From: Dehalococcoidia bacterium
GTDB taxonomy: Bacteria; Chloroflexota; Dehalococcoidia; SM23-28-2; RBG-16-64-32
Reading direction: 5' to 3'
Length of the DNA stretch: 15,956 nucleotides
Assembly (NCBI GenBank): GCA_030690405.1
Contig: JAUYGU010000139.1
Location: 1-15,956, forward strand
The position numbers were made by a program, and so were the translations under genes. Shown here one piece after another: positions 5,669 to 14,003 of the stretch; positions within the stretch are counted from its first letter, which is position 1, and each line of letters starts with the position of its first letter. Under the pieces are notes generated by a model that did not search any database, was not told where the DNA came from, and saw nothing but the letters and a program-made list of their open reading frames with translations.

Positions 5669-5674
5669 TAGAAT
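5669..5674 (+). promoter_or_regulatory. Probable -10 box of gltX (near-leaderless)
   Basis: TAGAAT ends 10 bases before the ATG at 5685 and overlaps an earlier in-frame ATG at 5673. If it is the -10 box, transcription begins around 5681, so the 5673 ATG would not be in the mRNA. The -35 region is weak (TGCCTT at about 18 bp). Confidence 0.5.
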
Positions 5675-5684
5675 GAGCCCCGCC

Positions 5685-7175
5685 ATGTCCGTCCGCGTCC
5701 GCTACGCACCCTCCCCCACCGGCGAGCCCCACGTCGGCAACATCCGCACCGCCCTCTTCAACTGGCTGTTCGCCCGCCACGAGGGCGGCGCCTTCATCGT
5801 CCGCTTCGAGGACACCGACCGCGCCCGCTACGTGGAGGGCGCCGAGCAGGCGATCCTGGAGTCGCTCGCCTGGCTGGGGCTGGACTACGACGAAGGACCG
5901 GACCCCGCGGACACCAGCCGCGACATCGGCGACTACGGACCGTACGTCCAGTCGCGCCGTGCTGAGACGTACCGCGGCTACGCCGAGCGGCTCATCGCGG
6001 GGGGCCACGCCTATCGCTGCTACTGCACGCCCGAGCGGCTGGACGAGGTCCGCAAGGAGATGCAGAGCCGCAAGCTACCCCCGAAATACGACCGCCACTG
6101 CCGCGACCTGTCCCCCGAAGAACGCGAGAGGCTTGCCGCCCAGGGACTCCCCGGCGTCGTGCGCTTCAAGACGCCGCTCACCGGTCAGACGGCGTTCCAC
6201 GACCTCGTGCGCGGCGACATCACCTTCGAGAACGACACCCTGGACGACTTCGTCCTCCTGAAGTCGGACGGCTTCCCCGTCTACCACCTGGCGAACGTCG
6301 TGGACGATACGCTCATGGAGATCACCCACATCCTCCGCGGCGACGAGTGGCTCTCCAGCACCCCCAGGCACGTCCTCCTGTACGCGGCGTTCGGCTGGGA
6401 GCCGCCCGCCTTCGCCCACCTGCCGATGATCCTGGGGCCGGACCGCTCCAAGCTCTCCAAGCGCCACGGCGACACCTCCGTCCTCGAGTTCCGCGAGCGT
6501 GGCTTTCTGCCCGAGGCGCTGTTCAACTTCCTCGGCCTCCTCGGCTGGTCCCTGGACGACCGCACGGAGATCATCGACCGCGACACCTTCGTCCGCCAGT
6601 TCAGCCTGGACCGCGTCCTCGCCAACCCTGCCGTATTCAACTTCGAAAAGCTCACCTGGATGAACGGCGTCTACATCCGCGGGCTGACCGACGAGGAGCT
6701 CGCGGAGCGGACTGCCCCCTACCTTGAGCGCGCCCTCGGCAGGCCGGTGGACCGCGACGTGCTGGCCCGCATCGCCCCCCTCATCCGCGAGCGCATCAAG
6801 CTCCTCGCGGAGGCCGCCGAGATGGCGGACTTCTTCTTCGTGGAGGGGGAGTTGGACTACGCCACGGAGACGCTGCTGGGGAAGAAGTTCGCGGGTGACA
6901 CCCCCGGCGCGGCGGCGGCGCTTCAGGCCGTGGTCGTGCGAGTCGAAGGCAGCGAGCCCTGGCAGCACGAGGCGCTGGAGGGGGTGATCCGCCCCCTTTC
7001 CGAGGAGCTGGCGCTGAAGGCCGGCGACCTGTTCGGCCTCATCCGCGTCGCCGTAAGCGGCAAGACCGTCTCGCCGCCCCTGTTCGAGACGATGGCCATG
7101 CTGGGACGCGAGCGCACGCTGGAGCGGCTCGCCTCAGCCGTCAGGCGGCTTCAGGCCATCACGGCGGCGGACTAG
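5685..7175 (+). CDS. gltX: Glutamate--tRNA ligase
   Basis: A class I aminoacyl-tRNA synthetase that charges tRNA-Glu using ATP. The protein has 496 residues, a normal length. The HIGH-type signature is PHVGN (15-19) after RYAPSPTGE, and the KMSKS-type loop is KLSKRHGDTS (256-265). A CYC motif followed by KYDRHCRDLS resembles the zinc-binding insertion of some GluRS, with the final ligand less clear. The C-terminal third is the helical anticodon-binding region. I chose the second ATG (5685) because the first one lies in the -10 box; the difference is four residues. Both tRNA-Glu genes and a tRNA-Gln gene are in this window. Whether the enzyme also mischarges tRNA-Gln (the indirect GatCAB route) cannot be decided by eye. 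Confidence 0.97.
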   Translation: MSVRVRYAPSPTGEPHVGNIRTALFNWLFARHEGGAFIVRFEDTDRARYVEGAEQAILESLAWLGLDYDEGPDPADTSRDIGDYGPYVQSRRAETYRGYAERLIAGGHAYRCYCTPERLDEVRKEMQSRKLPPKYDRHCRDLSPEERERLAAQGLPGVVRFKTPLTGQTAFHDLVRGDITFENDTLDDFVLLKSDGFPVYHLANVVDDTLMEITHILRGDEWLSSTPRHVLLYAAFGWEPPAFAHLPMILGPDRSKLSKRHGDTSVLEFRERGFLPEALFNFLGLLGWSLDDRTEIIDRDTFVRQFSLDRVLANPAVFNFEKLTWMNGVYIRGLTDEELAERTAPYLERALGRPVDRDVLARIAPLIRERIKLLAEAAEMADFFFVEGELDYATETLLGKKFAGDTPGAAAALQAVVVRVEGSEPWQHEALEGVIRPLSEELALKAGDLFGLIRVAVSGKTVSPPLFETMAMLGRERTLERLASAVRRLQAITAAD

Positions 7176-7180
7176 CCCGC

Positions 7181-7198
7181 ATAGCGAGCGCTTTCTCG
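7181..7198. promoter_or_regulatory. Degenerate TetR operator-like site A
   Basis: Matches 14 of 18 positions of the perfect palindrome ATAGCGAGCGCTCGCTAT found at the TetR gene's own promoter; the left twelve bases are identical and the right half is degenerate. It starts 6 bases after the gltX stop and lies exactly 20 bp from site B. Confidence 0.6.
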
Positions 7199-7200
7199 GT

Positions 7201-7218
7201 ATAATGAGCGCTCGCTAT
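7201..7218. promoter_or_regulatory. TetR operator-like site B
   Basis: ATAATGAGCGCTCGCTAT matches 16 of 18 positions of the palindrome at 8271-8288. The two sites A and B are spaced by about two helical turns, an arrangement suited to cooperative binding by two TetR dimers. A TATAAT hexamer overlaps each edge of the site, but no suitable -35 box goes with them. Confidence 0.72.
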
Positions 7219-7246
7219 ATAATGCTTGCTTTTCACCCCAAACCTC

Positions 7247-7274
7247 TTGACTGGGGGCGCGTGCGTCCTACAAT
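7247..7274 (+). promoter_or_regulatory. Orphan plus-strand promoter downstream of the operators
   Basis: TTGACT (7247-7252) and TACAAT (7269-7274) are separated by 16 bp. The predicted start is around 7281. No convincing reading frame follows. The transcript would run through the hairpins at 7462-7577 and, if not stopped, antisense into the TetR gene. Confidence 0.6.
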
Positions 7275-7461
7275 GAGTCATGATTTCAAATGCATGATAT
7301 TGATGAAATGATTGTGAGAACAAGCAAGCAACTTCCAGTCCCGGCCGCCGATGATCATCCCACTTCAGTCTTCGTGGTGGCGGTGGCGCCGTCTTGGACG
7401 CACGGCGGCCGTGCCGCTTCCTGGCTTTGGCGTCTCGAAACAGGGGTCGCCGCACCCCCAA

Positions 7462-7475
7462 TGGGGCTTACCCCA
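7462..7475. repeat. Small hairpin TGGGG-ctta-CCCCA
   Basis: A 5-bp stem with a CTTA loop. The string GGCTTACCCC across its loop recurs at the tip of the much longer hairpin 20 bases downstream, which hints at duplication or a shared fold. Confidence 0.5.
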
Positions 7476-7482
7476 GCCCCCG

Positions 7483-7530
7483 ACGACTGTGAGGCCGCCG
7501 CGGCTTACCCCGCGGCGGCCTCACAGTCGT
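7483..7530. repeat. Long perfect inverted repeat, 21-bp stem, 6-base loop
   Basis: The arms 7483-7503 and 7510-7530 are perfect reverse complements around a CTTACC loop. The arm begins ACGACTGTGAGG and ends CCGCCGCGG. It is far more stable than a typical terminator and has no following T-run on either strand. Its last 3 bases belong also to the next hairpin, so the two structures compete slightly at that edge. Confidence 0.88.
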
Positions 7531-7577
7531 GGTCCGAGCCGCAGCCCAAAGGGAGGAGCTAGGCGGCTCGGACCACG
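7528..7577. repeat. Second inverted repeat, 15-bp perfect stem, 20-base loop
   Basis: CGTGGTCCGAGCCGC (7528-7542) pairs with GCGGCTCGGACCACG (7563-7577). It lies 19 bases beyond the TetR stop codon on the minus strand, so it may protect or end that mRNA, although no T-run follows. The loop holds GGGAGGAG, a Shine-Dalgarno-like string on the plus strand. Confidence 0.85.
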
Positions 7578-7596
7578 CCCTCCATCGTTCCTCTCA

Positions 7597-8253
7597 CTAG
7601 CTTCGGCCGGCGGCCGGCGCCTCTGGCGCCAGTTCCACGTGGTTCCCGTTCGTCAGCCGGCCGGTCGTCATCAGCACCAGTGCCTTCAGGGCGCCGTCCA
7701 CATCGAAGTCGTCCCGCCAGAGCAGGCGGCCCAGGCGCAGCCCGTCGAAGATCGACATGATGAGGTTCGCCAGCCCTCTGGGATCGACGTCCTTCGTGTA
7801 CACGCCCTCGTCGACAGCGCCGCGGATCAGGGACTCCAGCCACCGCCGGCGTAGCGCCCGGCTCTCACGCGCGATGCCGGCCAGCTTCTCGTTCCGCAGT
7901 GATTCAGCCCAGATCTCCATGTCCAGCCGTGTCACATTGTCCAGCTGCGGATCACGGATCCACTGGAAGAACAGCGAGGCGAGGGCCTGGACCGCGGTGC
8001 GCACGTCCCCGGACGCCTCGGCTGCCGAGCGCAGGTTCTGGACGGTGGTGTGCGCCGCGTCCTCGATGACGGCGCTGATGATCTCTTCCTTGCTGCCGAA
8101 GTAGTGGTAGAGCCCGCCGGGCGTGATGGCGGCCTCGCGGCAGATCTCGTCGGTCGTCGTCTGGTGGAAGCCGTTGCGCAGGAAGCAGATGCGGGCCGCT
8201 TCGATTATCTCCCGCTTGCGTTGCTCGATCTCTTGAGGCTTCAGCTTCGACAT
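7597..8253 (-). CDS. TetR/AcrR-family transcriptional regulator
   Basis: A 218-residue repressor-type protein. The N-terminal helix-turn-helix spans about residues 14-60 (REIIEAARICFLRNGFHQTTTDEICREAAITPGGLYHYFGSKEEI), a textbook TetR domain. The C-terminal ligand-binding half is helical, with IRDPQLDNVTRLDMEIWAESLRNEKL resembling the C-terminal domain found in many TetR proteins. The ATG at 8253 has GGAGG about 8 bases upstream. A perfect 18-bp palindrome sits directly after the -10 box of its promoter, so it probably represses itself. Two related sites lie beyond its 3' end near gltX. No transporter or enzyme gene is divergent from it; its upstream neighbours are tRNA genes. The ligand and main target are unknown. 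Confidence 0.93.
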   Translation of the reverse strand: MSKLKPQEIEQRKREIIEAARICFLRNGFHQTTTDEICREAAITPGGLYHYFGSKEEIISAVIEDAAHTTVQNLRSAAEASGDVRTAVQALASLFFQWIRDPQLDNVTRLDMEIWAESLRNEKLAGIARESRALRRRWLESLIRGAVDEGVYTKDVDPRGLANLIMSIFDGLRLGRLLWRDDFDVDGALKALVLMTTGRLTNGNHVELAPEAPAAGRS

Positions 8254-8270: not shown

Positions 8271-8288
8271 ATAGCGAGCGCTCGCTAT
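8271..8288. promoter_or_regulatory. Perfect 18-bp palindromic operator of the TetR gene
   Basis: ATAGCGAGCGCTCGCTAT is its own reverse complement. On the minus strand it begins immediately after the -10 box, covering the transcription start, and ends 17 bases before the ATG. Position and symmetry fit an autorepression operator. Confidence 0.82.
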
Positions 8289-8318
8289 ACTATAGTCCCG
8301 CGATTCCCGAACTGTCAA
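8289..8318 (-). promoter_or_regulatory. Promoter of the TetR regulator
   Basis: A consensus -35 TTGACA (8318-8313) and -10 TATAGT (8294-8289) are 18 bp apart on the minus strand. This is one of the closest matches to sigma-70 consensus in the window. Confidence 0.78.
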
Positions 8319-8606: not shown

Positions 8607-9398
8607 CTACTGGTAGGCGCTGCCGGATTCCCTGCCCGGCTCCTTCTCGCGCACGGCGCGGATGTCCTCCCGCGCCGCCCGCGCCAGGCCGCCGGCGTCC
8701 CCGGTCACGAGGACGAACCGGAACCCCTCCTCGATCCGCTTCACCGCCGTGCGCGCCGTGGAGTTCACGCCCGCAACCACCCCGTGCCTGCGGCAGCCCT
8801 CCACGATGCGCTGGCGCGCCCGCGCGTACTCCGGCGCCTCGCCGTCCATCTCCGGCGTGATACCCAGTGAGATGCTCAGGTCCATCGGCCCGATGTAGAC
8901 CGCGTCGATGCCGGGCACGCTCAGGATATCGTCCAGGTTCTCCAGCGCCTCCACCGTCTCGATCTGCGGAATGCACAGCAGTTCGTCGTTCGCGTGGGCG
9001 AAGTAGTCGAAGCCCGCGTAGTAGGCGGCCCGCGTCGGGCCGTAGCTGCGGATCCCGCGGGGCGGGTAGCGGCACGCCTGCGCCGCCGCTTCCGCCTGCG
9101 CGCGGTTGTTCACCAGCGGAACGATCACGCCGTACGCTCCCGCGTCCAGCATCTTCATGATGATCGAGGGCTCGTTCCAGGGCACGCGCACGATCGGCGT
9201 GACCTTCGACGTCGAGATCGCCTGGAGCATAGGCACCGCCGCGTCGTAGCCGATCACCCCGTGCTGGGTATCCACGCACAGCCAGTCGAGGTCCTGGTTC
9301 GCCATGATCTCCGCCGAGAACGAGCTCGGGATGGAGAGCCAGCCACCCAGCGCCGGTTTGTCCTGCTGCCACAACCGCTTCACGGCGTTCTCGCGCAT
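8607..9398 (-). CDS. HpcH/HpaI-family class II aldolase (2-oxo acid aldolase or citrate-lyase-like)
   Basis: A 263-residue metal-dependent TIM-barrel aldolase. Family members reversibly cleave 4-hydroxy-2-oxo acids to pyruvate plus an aldehyde. Visible landmarks are the catalytic base H46 in DTQHG (43-47), substrate arginine R71 in IVRVPW, and the metal ligands E147 in PQIETVEAL and D173 in IGPMDLSISLG. GYGxx-type GIRSYGPTRA (115-124) matches the loop of the YfaU/RhmA and HpaI group. I chose the ATG at 9398 because GGAGG lies 7 bases upstream; the longer frame adds 16 unlikely residues. It is divergent from a benzoylformate-decarboxylase-like gene, 126 bp apart, and the two probably belong to one catabolic pathway. 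The precise substrate is not determinable from sequence alone. Confidence 0.9.
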   Translation of the reverse strand: MRENAVKRLWQQDKPALGGWLSIPSSFSAEIMANQDLDWLCVDTQHGVIGYDAAVPMLQAISTSKVTPIVRVPWNEPSIIMKMLDAGAYGVIVPLVNNRAQAEAAAQACRYPPRGIRSYGPTRAAYYAGFDYFAHANDELLCIPQIETVEALENLDDILSVPGIDAVYIGPMDLSISLGITPEMDGEAPEYARARQRIVEGCRRHGVVAGVNSTARTAVKRIEEGFRFVLVTGDAGGLARAAREDIRAVREKEPGRESGSAYQ

Positions 9399-11560: not shown

Positions 11561-11586
11561 CCGCACGTTCTGTTAGTAGCGTGCGG
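11561..11586. promoter_or_regulatory. Inverted repeat overlapping the sigma-factor start
   Basis: CCGCACG (11561-11567) and CGTGCGG (11580-11586) form a perfect 7-bp inverted repeat around 12 bases. The right arm contains the GTG start at 11581. It could be a protein-binding operator or an mRNA hairpin that hides the start codon. Confidence 0.55.
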
Positions 11587-12216
11587 TATATGTACGTTCA
11601 GGCGTTGTCAGGGTTAGCCGAAAAGCCCCGGGACCTGCCGGCCGGCAAAGAGGAGGCCGGCGCTCCCAGCGACCACATCCTTCGGGAGTGGCAACTGGTC
11701 CAACGTGCCCAGGCCCTGGAGGAGTCCGCCCTCGCCTCCCTCTACTCCACCTACTACCCGCGGATCTACAACTACGCCTTCCTCCACCTCGGCGACGTCC
11801 AGGCCGCTGAGGACCTGGCGTCCGAAGTGATGCTCAAGCTGCTGGAGTCCATTCAGAAATACCAGTTCAGGGGTATGCCGTTCTCCGCCTGGGTGTTCCG
11901 CATCGCCCGCAACAAGCTGATAGACCTCCACCGCCGCCGCAGTCGTCGCGGCGAGGTCGACCTCACGGAGCCCCTTGCCGCCGTTCAGATCAGCCCCCAG
12001 GCCCTCGCCGAACGCGCCCTCGACCGCGGACAGCTCCAACTCGCCCTCAAGTACCTGACGGAAGAGCAGCGGCAGGTGATCGTCCTCAAGTTCATCGAAG
12101 GCTTCGACAACGGCTCGATCGCCCGCATCCTCGGCCGCAGCGAAGGCGCGGTGAAATCGCTCCAGCACCGCGCGCTCCACTCTCTGCGCCGGATCATGAC
12201 GGCGGAGGCCCACTGA
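11581..12216 (+). CDS. RNA polymerase sigma factor, sigma-70 family (ECF-type)
   Basis: A 211-residue alternative sigma factor with two conserved regions. Region 2 spans about 52-118 (LASLYSTYYPRIYNYAFLHL through EDLASEVMLKLLESI to SAWVFRIARNKLIDLHRRR). Region 4 spans about 158-205 (LTEEQRQVIVLKFIEGFDN, then the helix-turn-helix IARILGRSEGAVKSLQHRAL). The spacing is that of ECF-like sigma factors without a region 3. The N-terminus is uncertain: GTG at 11581 or ATG at 11590, neither with a Shine-Dalgarno. The stop overlaps the next gene's ATG (TGATG), so the sigma factor and its membrane partner are translationally coupled. This pairing fits a membrane-tethered control of the sigma factor. The signal and target promoters are not visible. 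Confidence 0.92.
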   Translation: MRYMYVQALSGLAEKPRDLPAGKEEAGAPSDHILREWQLVQRAQALEESALASLYSTYYPRIYNYAFLHLGDVQAAEDLASEVMLKLLESIQKYQFRGMPFSAWVFRIARNKLIDLHRRRSRRGEVDLTEPLAAVQISPQALAERALDRGQLQLALKYLTEEQRQVIVLKFIEGFDNGSIARILGRSEGAVKSLQHRALHSLRRIMTAEAH

Positions 12217-14003
12217 TGGCGCGCAGGTTCGCCTCCATCCTCGATGAGTGCTTCGCCGCCCTCAGCCAGGGCGAGACGCTGGAGGCCTGCCTGGCACGTT
12301 ACCCCAAGTACGCCGAGGAGCTGCGCGCGCACCTCCTCCTCGCCCAGCGCCTTGTCCTGACACCGCCGCACCAGCCACGCCCCGCGGCCCAGGCTATCGG
12401 CTGGCATCAGTTCCGGGCACAGGCCCAGGACAAGCGCCTGGGTCACAAGCCGCTCCTTTCCGTCGGCTTGGGCTGGCTGCGTCCCCTGACCATCGCTGCC
12501 GCCGTCGCCTTCGCCCTCCTCGGCGCCGCCGGCGGCACCATCTACGCCTCCCAGGACGCGCTGCCGGATAACCCCCTCTACCGCGTCAAGCTCGCCACCG
12601 AGGACGCCCGCGTCTGGTTTACCTTCGACGACAGTCGCAAGGCCGAGCTCCTGCTCGACCAGTCAAGCGAGCGCACCAATGAGATCATGGAGATGCTCGG
12701 CGGGGGCAATGCCGTCCCCGGCAACGTCCTCTCGGCGATGCGTGACCGCAACGCCAGGGCGGTGCGCATCCTGGCAGACAACCCGCACGAGCTGGACCTA
12801 GTGACCCGCGCCCGCGAGCAATCCGCGGAGCAGGAGGACCTCCTGCTGGTCCTCTGGGGCGACCTCGAACCGTCCGCCCAGGACGACTACGCGGAGGCCG
12901 TGGCTACGCTGCACAACGCCCAACTGCGCACGAGCGGCATACCCGGCTCCGTCAAGCCAGACGACGTGGCAGCGGGCGTCATCAACATCTCCGGCCCGGC
13001 GGAACCGGCCACGGAAGGCGTCTGGCTGCTCGGCGGCGTCGAGGTCAGGCTCGATACGCGCACGCTGGGAGGGGCGGGGCTTCAGCCCGGCCAGCCCGTC
13101 AGCGTCATCGCCGCCAGGGGTGCCAACGGCCGCCTCTTCGCCCTCAGCGTCACGCCCAGCGACGGCGACCAGCCCGATCAGAAGTACGTCGTCTCCGGCA
13201 CCGTCGAAGACGTGGGAGACAACGAAGTCGTGATCGCCGGTCAGCGCATCACCATTACCGAGAGGACGCTCCTCAAGCTCAAGCTCCAGCGCGGCAAGAA
13301 GGTCGAAATCAATGTAGAGGACGTCGGCGGGCAGGCCGTCGCGGCCAGCGTGGCGGGGCCGGGGGACGCTGGACAGTCGGCCCCCGCTGTGCTCGCCTAC
13401 GAAGGAGCCATCGAGAGTTCGGTCAGCGCAGAGGGCCTGCCGAACGACCTGGTCGTCGGCGGCCAGGAGTTCACGGTCACCGCGGCCACCGATATTGACG
13501 TCCGGGCCGGAACGCTCAAGAAGGGCGCGCTGGCCCGGGTGGAGGCCGCTGCCGCTGATGGTGAGATCGTCGCCAAGCGCGTCGTCGTCCTCGGCACGGA
13601 GAACGACGAATCCGCCGTCCACGTCGAAGGTGTCCTCGAGAAGAGCGGCGACGGCAGCTGGACAGTGAGCGGCGTAGAGGTCGTCGCCCCGGCCACTGCC
13701 GAAGCACCGGATGTTGGGAGCCTCGTGACCCTGGACGGCCACCGCAAGGACAAGCGGCTCGTGGCCGAGAAGCTGATCACCACCTACCACCTGGGACGCG
13801 GCGGCTTCGCCCTCATCCGCGGCCCGCTGGTTCGGATCGGCCAGGACGGCACCTGGCAGATCGGCCTCGTGCCCATCGGAGTGCCGGCGGATGCGGTGAT
13901 CAGGGGCGAGCCCCAGGTAGGCAGCCGTACATTCGTCTGGGCCAACCGCGACGACGACGGCGCGCTCAAGGCGCTGTTCATCAACGTCCTCCAAGCAGAC
14001 TGA
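12216..14003 (+). CDS. DUF5667/DUF5666-type membrane protein, putative anti-sigma partner
   Basis: A 595-residue, one-pass membrane protein coupled to the sigma factor. The N-terminal cytoplasmic part (6-48, ILDECFAALSQGETLEACLA then RYPKYAEELRAHLLLAQRL) is a helical segment common in proteins next to Chloroflexota sigma factors and is the likely sigma-binding region. A transmembrane helix spans about 91-110. A DUF5667-like helical segment follows (about 115-215, DALPDNPLYRVKLATEDARV and DQSSERTNEIMEM). The outer part consists of about five beta-rich repeats of DUF5666 character (each a GxV or GPL opening, a vvvGG strand and a T-x-(I/V) strand), at about 250-310, 325-375, 390-445, 455-510 and 525-590. 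The repeats may act as an extracytoplasmic sensor or adhesion module. The anti-sigma role is inferred from layout and operon position; no zinc motif is present. Confidence 0.8.
   Translation: MARRFASILDECFAALSQGETLEACLARYPKYAEELRAHLLLAQRLVLTPPHQPRPAAQAIGWHQFRAQAQDKRLGHKPLLSVGLGWLRPLTIAAAVAFALLGAAGGTIYASQDALPDNPLYRVKLATEDARVWFTFDDSRKAELLLDQSSERTNEIMEMLGGGNAVPGNVLSAMRDRNARAVRILADNPHELDLVTRAREQSAEQEDLLLVLWGDLEPSAQDDYAEAVATLHNAQLRTSGIPGSVKPDDVAAGVINISGPAEPATEGVWLLGGVEVRLDTRTLGGAGLQPGQPVSVIAARGANGRLFALSVTPSDGDQPDQKYVVSGTVEDVGDNEVVIAGQRITITERTLLKLKLQRGKKVEINVEDVGGQAVAASVAGPGDAGQSAPAVLAYEGAIESSVSAEGLPNDLVVGGQEFTVTAATDIDVRAGTLKKGALARVEAAAADGEIVAKRVVVLGTENDESAVHVEGVLEKSGDGSWTVSGVEVVAPATAEAPDVGSLVTLDGHRKDKRLVAEKLITTYHLGRGGFALIRGPLVRIGQDGTWQIGLVPIGVPADAVIRGEPQVGSRTFVWANRDDDGALKALFINVLQAD

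What the first reader, a model, noticed from the sequence alone, without database searches (positions are those of the whole stretch)
7176..7596. TetR-linked orphan promoter feeding a highly structured non-coding stretch
Two operator-like palindromes 20 bp apart precede a good plus-strand promoter (TTGACT, 16 bp, TACAAT). No convincing gene follows. Instead there are three hairpins, including a perfect 21-bp stem and a perfect 15-bp stem that share 3 bases. One reading is a TetR-controlled small structured RNA of about 300 bases that ends near, or runs antisense into, the TetR gene's 3' end. The other reading is a relic of a lost target gene.
Basis: partly seen in the sequence, partly recalled or inferred. 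Interest (0 to 1): 0.72.

Follow-up and report, generated by a model that had tools for sequence, protein, structure and literature searches.

The report
TetR regulator's dedicated structured RNA
Beside a TetR-type switch gene, uncultured Chloroflexota bacteria carry a conserved RNA gene that seems to make no protein and to be the switch's main outside target, a new family of regulatory RNA whose own target is unknown.

Summary
7176-7596 lies between gltX and a convergent tetR in an uncultured Chloroflexota. Ten relatives keep a homologous structured core beside tetR; the nine whose promoter is readable, and the window, share a 20-bp-phased operator array and a TTGAC promoter. Two of the ten lack gltX nearby, so the unit is RNA plus tetR. 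The core has a closing stem, an inner stem, CCGCACCCC (11 of 11 sequences) and two GC hairpins, with compensatory changes mainly in the hairpins. No frame shows coding constraint, while tetR does. A covariance model built from these sequences finds no further copy in 383 other class genomes or 399 others of the phylum; Rfam has no match. Of 22 near-exact operator sites in 15 family genomes, 18 lie at tetR or RNA promoters. At tetR the operator sits just after the -10 (autorepression, inferred). At the RNA promoter operators are centred exactly 37 and 57 bp upstream of the -35 in 10 of 10 sequences, the geometry of an activator rather than of a blocking repressor. Transcription is not shown. 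Pattern searches for a target found none.

The parts
7182..7197 (+). TetR operator 1 of the RNA promoter (centre 57 bp upstream of the first base of the -35)
   Evidence: same spacing in 10 of 10 sequences (window and nine relatives)
7202..7217 (+). TetR operator 2 (centre 37 bp upstream of the -35)
   Evidence: 10 of 10 sequences
7247..7274 (+). promoter of the RNA: TTGACT, 16 bp, TACAAT; start near 7281 (estimated)
   Evidence: TTGAC kept in the 10 sequences that cover it (masked in G002)
7281..7590 (+). predicted non-coding transcript (both ends estimated)
   Evidence: no RNA data available
7431..7485 (+). core: P1 7431-7434/7482-7485, P2 7443-7447/7470-7474, P3 7455-7458/7463-7466
   Evidence: P1 and P2 are short in the window, P1 competes with the lengthened P4, and the minimum-energy fold of the window core shows local hairpins instead of P2/P3
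7450..7458 (+). CCGCACCCC, identical in 11 of 11 aligned sequences
7483..7530 (+). P4 hairpin (21-bp stem here, about 11 bp in relatives, with compensatory changes)
7528..7577 (+). P5 GC-rich terminal hairpin, terminator-like; loop CCAAAGGGAGG shared within the window's clade
7597..8253 (-). TetR-family regulator (TetR_N; BetI-like C-terminal domain)
   Evidence: in the ten unit loci 42-74% identical
8272..8287 (-). exact operator just downstream of the tetR -10: autorepression (inferred)
8289..8318 (-). tetR promoter TTGACA, 18 bp, TATAGT

Best explanation
The interval is the gene of a non-coding regulatory RNA of about 300 nt, controlled by the neighbouring TetR-family protein. SHOWN BY COMPARISON: RNA core and convergent tetR are conserved together in ten genomes of one Chloroflexota family; the operator array and TTGAC promoter are seen in the nine of them whose promoter is readable; the RNA is structured, shows no coding constraint and ends in a GC hairpin; most near-exact operators (18 of 22) lie at the tetR or RNA promoters. 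INFERRED: TetR represses its own gene, because an operator lies just after the tetR -10, and switches the RNA from the 20-bp-phased array at -37/-57(/-77) relative to the -35. That geometry fits activation by contact with RNA polymerase upstream of the -35 slightly better than repression (about 55:45). The RNA then acts in trans, most likely by offering the invariant CCGCACCCC to a partner, an mRNA (preferred) or a protein. The convergent layout would also let read-through RNA meet the 3' end of the tetR mRNA, which could close a feedback loop.
For: Synteny and conservation. gltX not found near the unit in 2 of 10 loci, L025 and L026. Among the family's 15 genomes 11 have a TetR match at E<=1e-30, and all 10 with the RNA are among them. 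Covariance model R1, built from the window and these ten (so the ten match by construction): no other of 25 order genomes, 393 class genomes or 400 phylum genomes. Compensation in P1 plus P4: 18 cells changed on both sides, 0 of 500 shuffles reach this; covariation score 0.320 against 0.173, 0 of 500. P2 flanking pairs differ yet pair: UAC/GUA (G010, G008), AA/UU (G001, G003), GA/UC (G006) and, in the tentative G015, CA/UG. Coding test: 7 pairs, six frames, synonymous share scattered round expectation; tetR control 0.57-0.75 against 0.25-0.27 in 5 pairs. Operators within one mismatch: 18 of 22 at tetR or RNA promoters, 14 sites against 2 for the reversed pattern. Array spacing identical in 10 of 10 while the -35 to core distance varies from 151 to 192. 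Precedent: LuxR, a TetR-type protein, directly activates qrr2-4 (PMC2680268, passages seen).
Against: No transcript data. No T-run terminator in the window. Two covariation measures are not exceptional: pairs changed on both sides (30 of 500 shuffles reach it) and further pair types (275 of 500); P1 alone has one such pair and 84.6% of cells paired. Minimum-energy folds of the core show the nested P2 form in 6 of 12 sequences (G001, G011, G012, G006, G007, G015) and not in the window, G003, G002, G014, G010, G008. No conserved target found. G015 has a TetR match but only a weak RNA candidate without recognised operators. Direction of control is inferred from geometry alone, and the LuxR paper calls LuxR's qrr sites too far upstream for an ordinary activation mechanism and TetR-type proteins otherwise repressors. 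At two mismatches operator counts do not exceed the control (104 against 115).
Confidence: 0.8

Rival explanations
1. The RNA works by binding a protein or a small molecule (a sponge or aptamer) through the conserved loop, not by base pairing.
For: CCGCACCCC is kept inside closing stems that vary; complements of the P4 loop and of the motif gave no conserved gene-start site.
Against: No known aptamer family reaches its Rfam score; C-rich motifs also suit pairing to G-rich ribosome-binding sites, and seeds of 6-8 nt would escape these searches.
Confidence: 0.3
2. It acts mainly in cis: the RNA or its read-through is antisense to the tetR mRNA 3' end, and the hairpins end both convergent transcripts.
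For: Convergent, 19 nt between P5 and the tetR stop in the window; tetR follows on the opposite strand in all ten relatives.
Against: Antisense needs no conserved motif or compensatory stems; the invariant motif ends 138 nt before the tetR stop; T-rich tails after P5 lie on the + strand in G008 and G010.
Confidence: 0.12
3. A small protein gene, or the decayed target gene of TetR.
For: The window has a 90-aa ORF 7290-7562; relatives have + strand ORFs of about 50-96 aa. In the three closest pairs some frames have a synonymous share above expectation (up to 0.43 against 0.27, on 14-28 substitutions).
Against: In the four more diverged pairs (50-58 substitutions) the largest shares are 0.35-0.36 against 0.27-0.29, and no frame does so consistently, while the tetR control gives 0.57-0.75; the invariant motif is read in three frames by the relatives' ORFs; no Pfam match for the 90-aa ORF; frame-breaking indels.
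Confidence: 0.03
4. Only the terminator or 3' untranslated region of gltX.
For: Directly downstream of gltX in the window and with gltX in 8 of 10 fetched unit loci.
Against: Own promoter and operators; no gltX found in the fetched stretches of G006 and G007.
Confidence: 0.04

Closest known systems
Vibrio LuxR (TetR family) and the Qrr sRNAs
   Same: A TetR-family protein binds upstream of sRNA promoters and activates them in a feedback loop (PMC2680268, passages seen)
   Different: Qrr genes also need LuxO~P and sigma-54 (same passages) and LuxR has other target genes; here the promoter is sigma-70-like, the regulator is adjacent, and few other near-exact sites exist.
Regulator-adjacent sRNA pairs such as OxyR-OxyS, GcvA-GcvB, SgrR-SgrS (recalled, no call)
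   Same: Regulator gene next to the sRNA gene it controls
   Different: As recalled those are divergent and under other regulator families; here convergent and TetR-type.
6C / B11 sRNA of actinobacteria (features recalled; papers seen in a search listing only)
   Same: Structured RNA with C-rich stretches
   Different: No Rfam match here; different architecture and regulator.

Membership tests
TetR family regulator (7597-8253) | TetR_N domain above the gathering score | tested here: met
   60.2 bits against cut-off 24
Bacterial regulatory sRNA (as a class) | own promoter and conserved, structured, non-coding sequence | tested here: met
Bacterial regulatory sRNA (as a class) | intrinsic terminator | tested here: inconclusive
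   GC hairpin in all; none scored in the window; T-rich tail by eye in G008 and G010; relatives were not scanned
Bacterial regulatory sRNA (as a class) | observed transcript | not testable with these tools
   no RNA data held
Any Rfam 15 family | score at or above gathering | tested here: not met
   window: only three tRNAs pass; on 7482-7544 the best are MIR5534, 26.5 bits against 79, and Ms_IGR-8, 26.2 against 44; 7 relatives' loci: only two tRNAs in L023 pass
Qrr sRNA | Rfam match | tested here: not met
   no such match listed at E<=1 in the window or E<=2 in 7 relatives
6C / B11 sRNA | Rfam match | tested here: not met
   no such match listed at E<=1 in the window or E<=2 in 7 relatives
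Riboswitch or cis leader | controlled gene directly downstream on the same strand | tested here: not met
   tetR follows on the opposite strand in the window and all ten relatives

The most novel reading that the evidence does not exclude
A two-part regulator: a TetR-type protein that activates one RNA from a rigid 20-bp operator array and otherwise controls little but itself, with the RNA, not the protein, carrying the regulon, possibly through a new aptamer-like loop that binds a protein, perhaps TetR itself.
Probability: 0.2. Interest if true: 0.85.

Novelty: new variant of a known kind. Interest (0 to 1): 0.62.

Why it matters
It is a structured RNA family without a match in Rfam 15, in an uncultured lineage. 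TetR proteins are usually thought of as repressors of protein genes; one whose only clear outside target is an RNA would mean that its response is post-transcriptional. The strict operator array makes the question of TetR-type activation directly testable.

Tried and rejected
Small protein gene: disfavoured by the frame test with tetR control and by frame disagreement at the invariant motif. gltX 3' region: disfavoured, since no gltX is found in the fetched stretches of G006 and G007. Known RNA family: none in Rfam.

Targets. P4-loop complement GAGCCCATGW, 5 genomes: 45 sites, five of them the RNA itself; 27 of the other 40 were examined. G006 has only two, both examined, neither at a convincing gene start, so no 10-nt target is shared by all five. 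Motif complement AGGGGTGCGGC, 15 genomes: 40 sites against 44 for the reversed control; 30 examined; some recur between genomes, also in genomes without the RNA, none as a shared gene-start site. Two sites stand just before ORFs of G007 and G002 that look secreted by eye; the proteins look unrelated, and I treat this as chance. GGGGTGCGGN{1,7}ATG: 74 sites in the ten genomes with the RNA (about 23.9 Mb; 27 of them in G014, largely one repeat) and 18 in the five without a clear RNA (about 9.4 Mb), that is 2.3 per Mb leaving out G014 against 1.9; only counted, loci not examined.

Wider regulon. Of 22 sites with at most one mismatch in 15 genomes, four lie elsewhere: a tetR-promoter fragment at a contig end (G002), a tetR paralogue's promoter (G003), a site inside a long helicase-like ORF (G008), and one in G009, which has no TetR match.

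Two local GC hairpins instead of nested P2/P3: this is the minimum-energy form in the window, G003, G002 and, inside P1, G014; G010 and G008 show yet another fold. I prefer the nested form for the flanking pairs, but it is not settled.

G015 candidate: 19.7 bits is below four - or opposite-strand matches (22.1-27.4 bits) that only reflect the palindromic hairpin, so it stays tentative.

Full report
WHAT IS THERE. The window comes from an uncultured Chloroflexota (the three gltX relatives found are Chloroflexi MAGs). gltX (5673-7175, +) is followed by 7176-7596 and then by a TetR-family gene on the opposite strand (7597-8253, TetR_N 60.2 bits) and tRNA-Gln and tRNA-Glu genes. The + strand folds 6.4 sd below shuffles and the - strand 6.2, so the strand must be decided by other evidence.

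RELATIVES. A gltX scan of genome contigs gave three loci at 79-80% identity. All three have a homologous interval with convergent tetR; operators and -35 are readable in L001 and L003 and masked in L002. A DNA search of the 15-genome family matched 4 of 15, adding G012. A search of 393 class genomes with the TetR protein gave 17 with E<=1e-30, of which 11 are in the family; six more of these 11 carry a homologous interval (G014, G011, G010, G006, G007, G008). The RNA core is therefore seen in the window and ten genomes. gltX is found in 8 of these ten loci and not in the fetched stretches of G006 and G007: what stays together is RNA and tetR.

STRUCTURE. The eleven sequences share, from 5' to 3', a variable leader and a core with P1 (GCGUCU/AGACGC), P2, CCGCACCCC (identical in 11 of 11), a short P3, then hairpin P4 and the terminal hairpin P5. 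On the MAFFT alignment A2, P1 plus P4 form standard pairs in 93.5% of cells against 86.3% in shuffles; 18 cells are changed on both sides (0 of 500 shuffles reach this) and the covariation score is 0.320 against 0.173 (0 of 500). The number of pairs with such a change (6) is reached by 30 of 500 and the number of further pair types by 275 of 500, so those two measures do not discriminate. Slid controls pair 29-50% of cells. P4 has five of the six pairs changed on both sides, P1 one. P5 shows such changes within the window's clade of four sequences. P2 lies in G and C runs: the nested form is the minimum-energy fold in 6 of 12 sequences and not in the window. In its favour, the flanking pairs change and still pair: UAC/GUA in G010 and G008, AA/UU in G001 and G003, GA/UC in G006, CA/UG in G015. 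In the window P4 has grown to 21 bp, takes bases from P1 and touches P5; this overlap is a local peculiarity.

NO CODING CONSTRAINT. In seven sequence pairs the share of synonymous substitutions in the transcript lies round expectation in the six frames. In the four more diverged pairs (50-58 substitutions) the largest values are 0.35-0.36 against 0.27-0.29 expected. In the three closest pairs (14-28 substitutions) single frames reach 0.43 against 0.27; these say little alone. tetR in five of the same pairs gives 0.57-0.75 against 0.25-0.27 in its own frame. The invariant motif is read as AAP, PHP or RTP by the ORFs of different relatives.

DISTRIBUTION. A covariance model of P1 to P4 (R1) was built from the window and the ten genomes, so those ten match by construction. 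What the searches add is that no other genome matches: 10 of 25 in the order, the same 10 of 393 in the class, and only G001 of 400 in the phylum (the last two with stricter filters). One match per genome at these thresholds, each beside tetR. G015 has a TetR match at 47% identity and a weak RNA match in the right place (L027 1227-1321, 19.7 bits, E 0.017, 0.048) that folds into the nested shape with a 10-bp P1, but without recognised operators; opposite-strand matches to the palindromic hairpin score 22-27 bits, so it is tentative. G004, G005, G009 and G013 show neither RNA nor TetR match (that one search covered all 15 family genomes follows from its handle numbers); completeness is not told. 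Rfam 15 has no match.

REGULATION. In the ten sequences that cover the promoter (window and nine genomes), operators are centred exactly 37 and 57 bp upstream of the first base of the -35, with a third in eight of them (at 77 in seven, 78 in G008) and a fourth at 97 in G007 (the scan asked for the GAGCGC core). The distance from -35 to core varies from 151 to 192 in the same sequences (coordinates) and the -35/-10 spacer from 15 to 17. At the tetR promoter one operator lies downstream of the -10 in the listed sequences. Sites within one mismatch: 22 in 15 genomes, 18 of them at the tetR or RNA promoters; in the eight genomes, 14 sites against 2 for the reversed pattern. At two mismatches counts do not exceed the control (104 against 115), so weaker targets cannot be excluded. 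The tetR site suggests autorepression. The rigid upstream array with a weak -10 suggests activation more readily than occlusion (class-I activator geometry, recalled). LuxR of Vibrio is a TetR-type precedent for direct activation of sRNA genes (PMC2680268, passages seen); the same paper says that well-characterised TetR-type proteins are otherwise repressors and that LuxR's sites there are too far upstream for an ordinary activation mechanism.

FUNCTION. No target is known. Complements of the P4 loop and of the motif give no shared gene-start site among those examined, and GGGGTGCGGN{1,7}ATG is about as common with as without the RNA (2.3 against 1.9 per Mb leaving out G014). I prefer a trans-acting base-pairing RNA (about one half), then a protein- or ligand-binding RNA (0.3), then cis antisense (0.12). 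Paper searches for a TetR-controlled RNA in Chloroflexi or a TetR-adjacent sRNA (listings only) showed no report of this one; most subscription papers are not held.

VERDICT. A conserved, family-restricted structured RNA gene with an almost private TetR regulator. As a regulated RNA gene: about 0.8 to 0.9 likely on comparative grounds; activation over repression: about 0.55; mode of action: open.

Noticed in passing
L035 (G003:C59): A second tetR paralogue (60% identical to the window's) with the exact same operator at its own promoter; R1 finds no RNA beside it: possible cross-regulation.
   Followed up: partly
L002 about 8730-8780: The tRNA-Gln sequence present in the window breaks off in the middle and the following sequence differs; ARAGORN finds no tRNA in L002. 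Either an assembly break or an insertion into the tRNA.
   Followed up: no
window 11581-14003 and L001 8701-11132: A sigma-factor-like gene (by eye) and the gene next to it lie 3.3 kb beyond tetR in the window but directly beside tetR in L001 and L003: local rearrangement.
   Followed up: no
G014:C34:67145-67515 and other contigs: GGGGTGCGGGCGAATG recurs many times, four of the copies at 118-119-bp steps: a repeat unrelated to this finding.
   Followed up: no
L042 (G009:C9:9956): A one-mismatch operator between two ORFs that look divergent by eye, in a genome without a TetR match.
   Followed up: partly
window 7543-7562: The P5 loop of the window's clade shows CCAAAGGGAGG, a Shine-Dalgarno-like stretch, in five of the eleven sequences and not in the other six.
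   Followed up: partly
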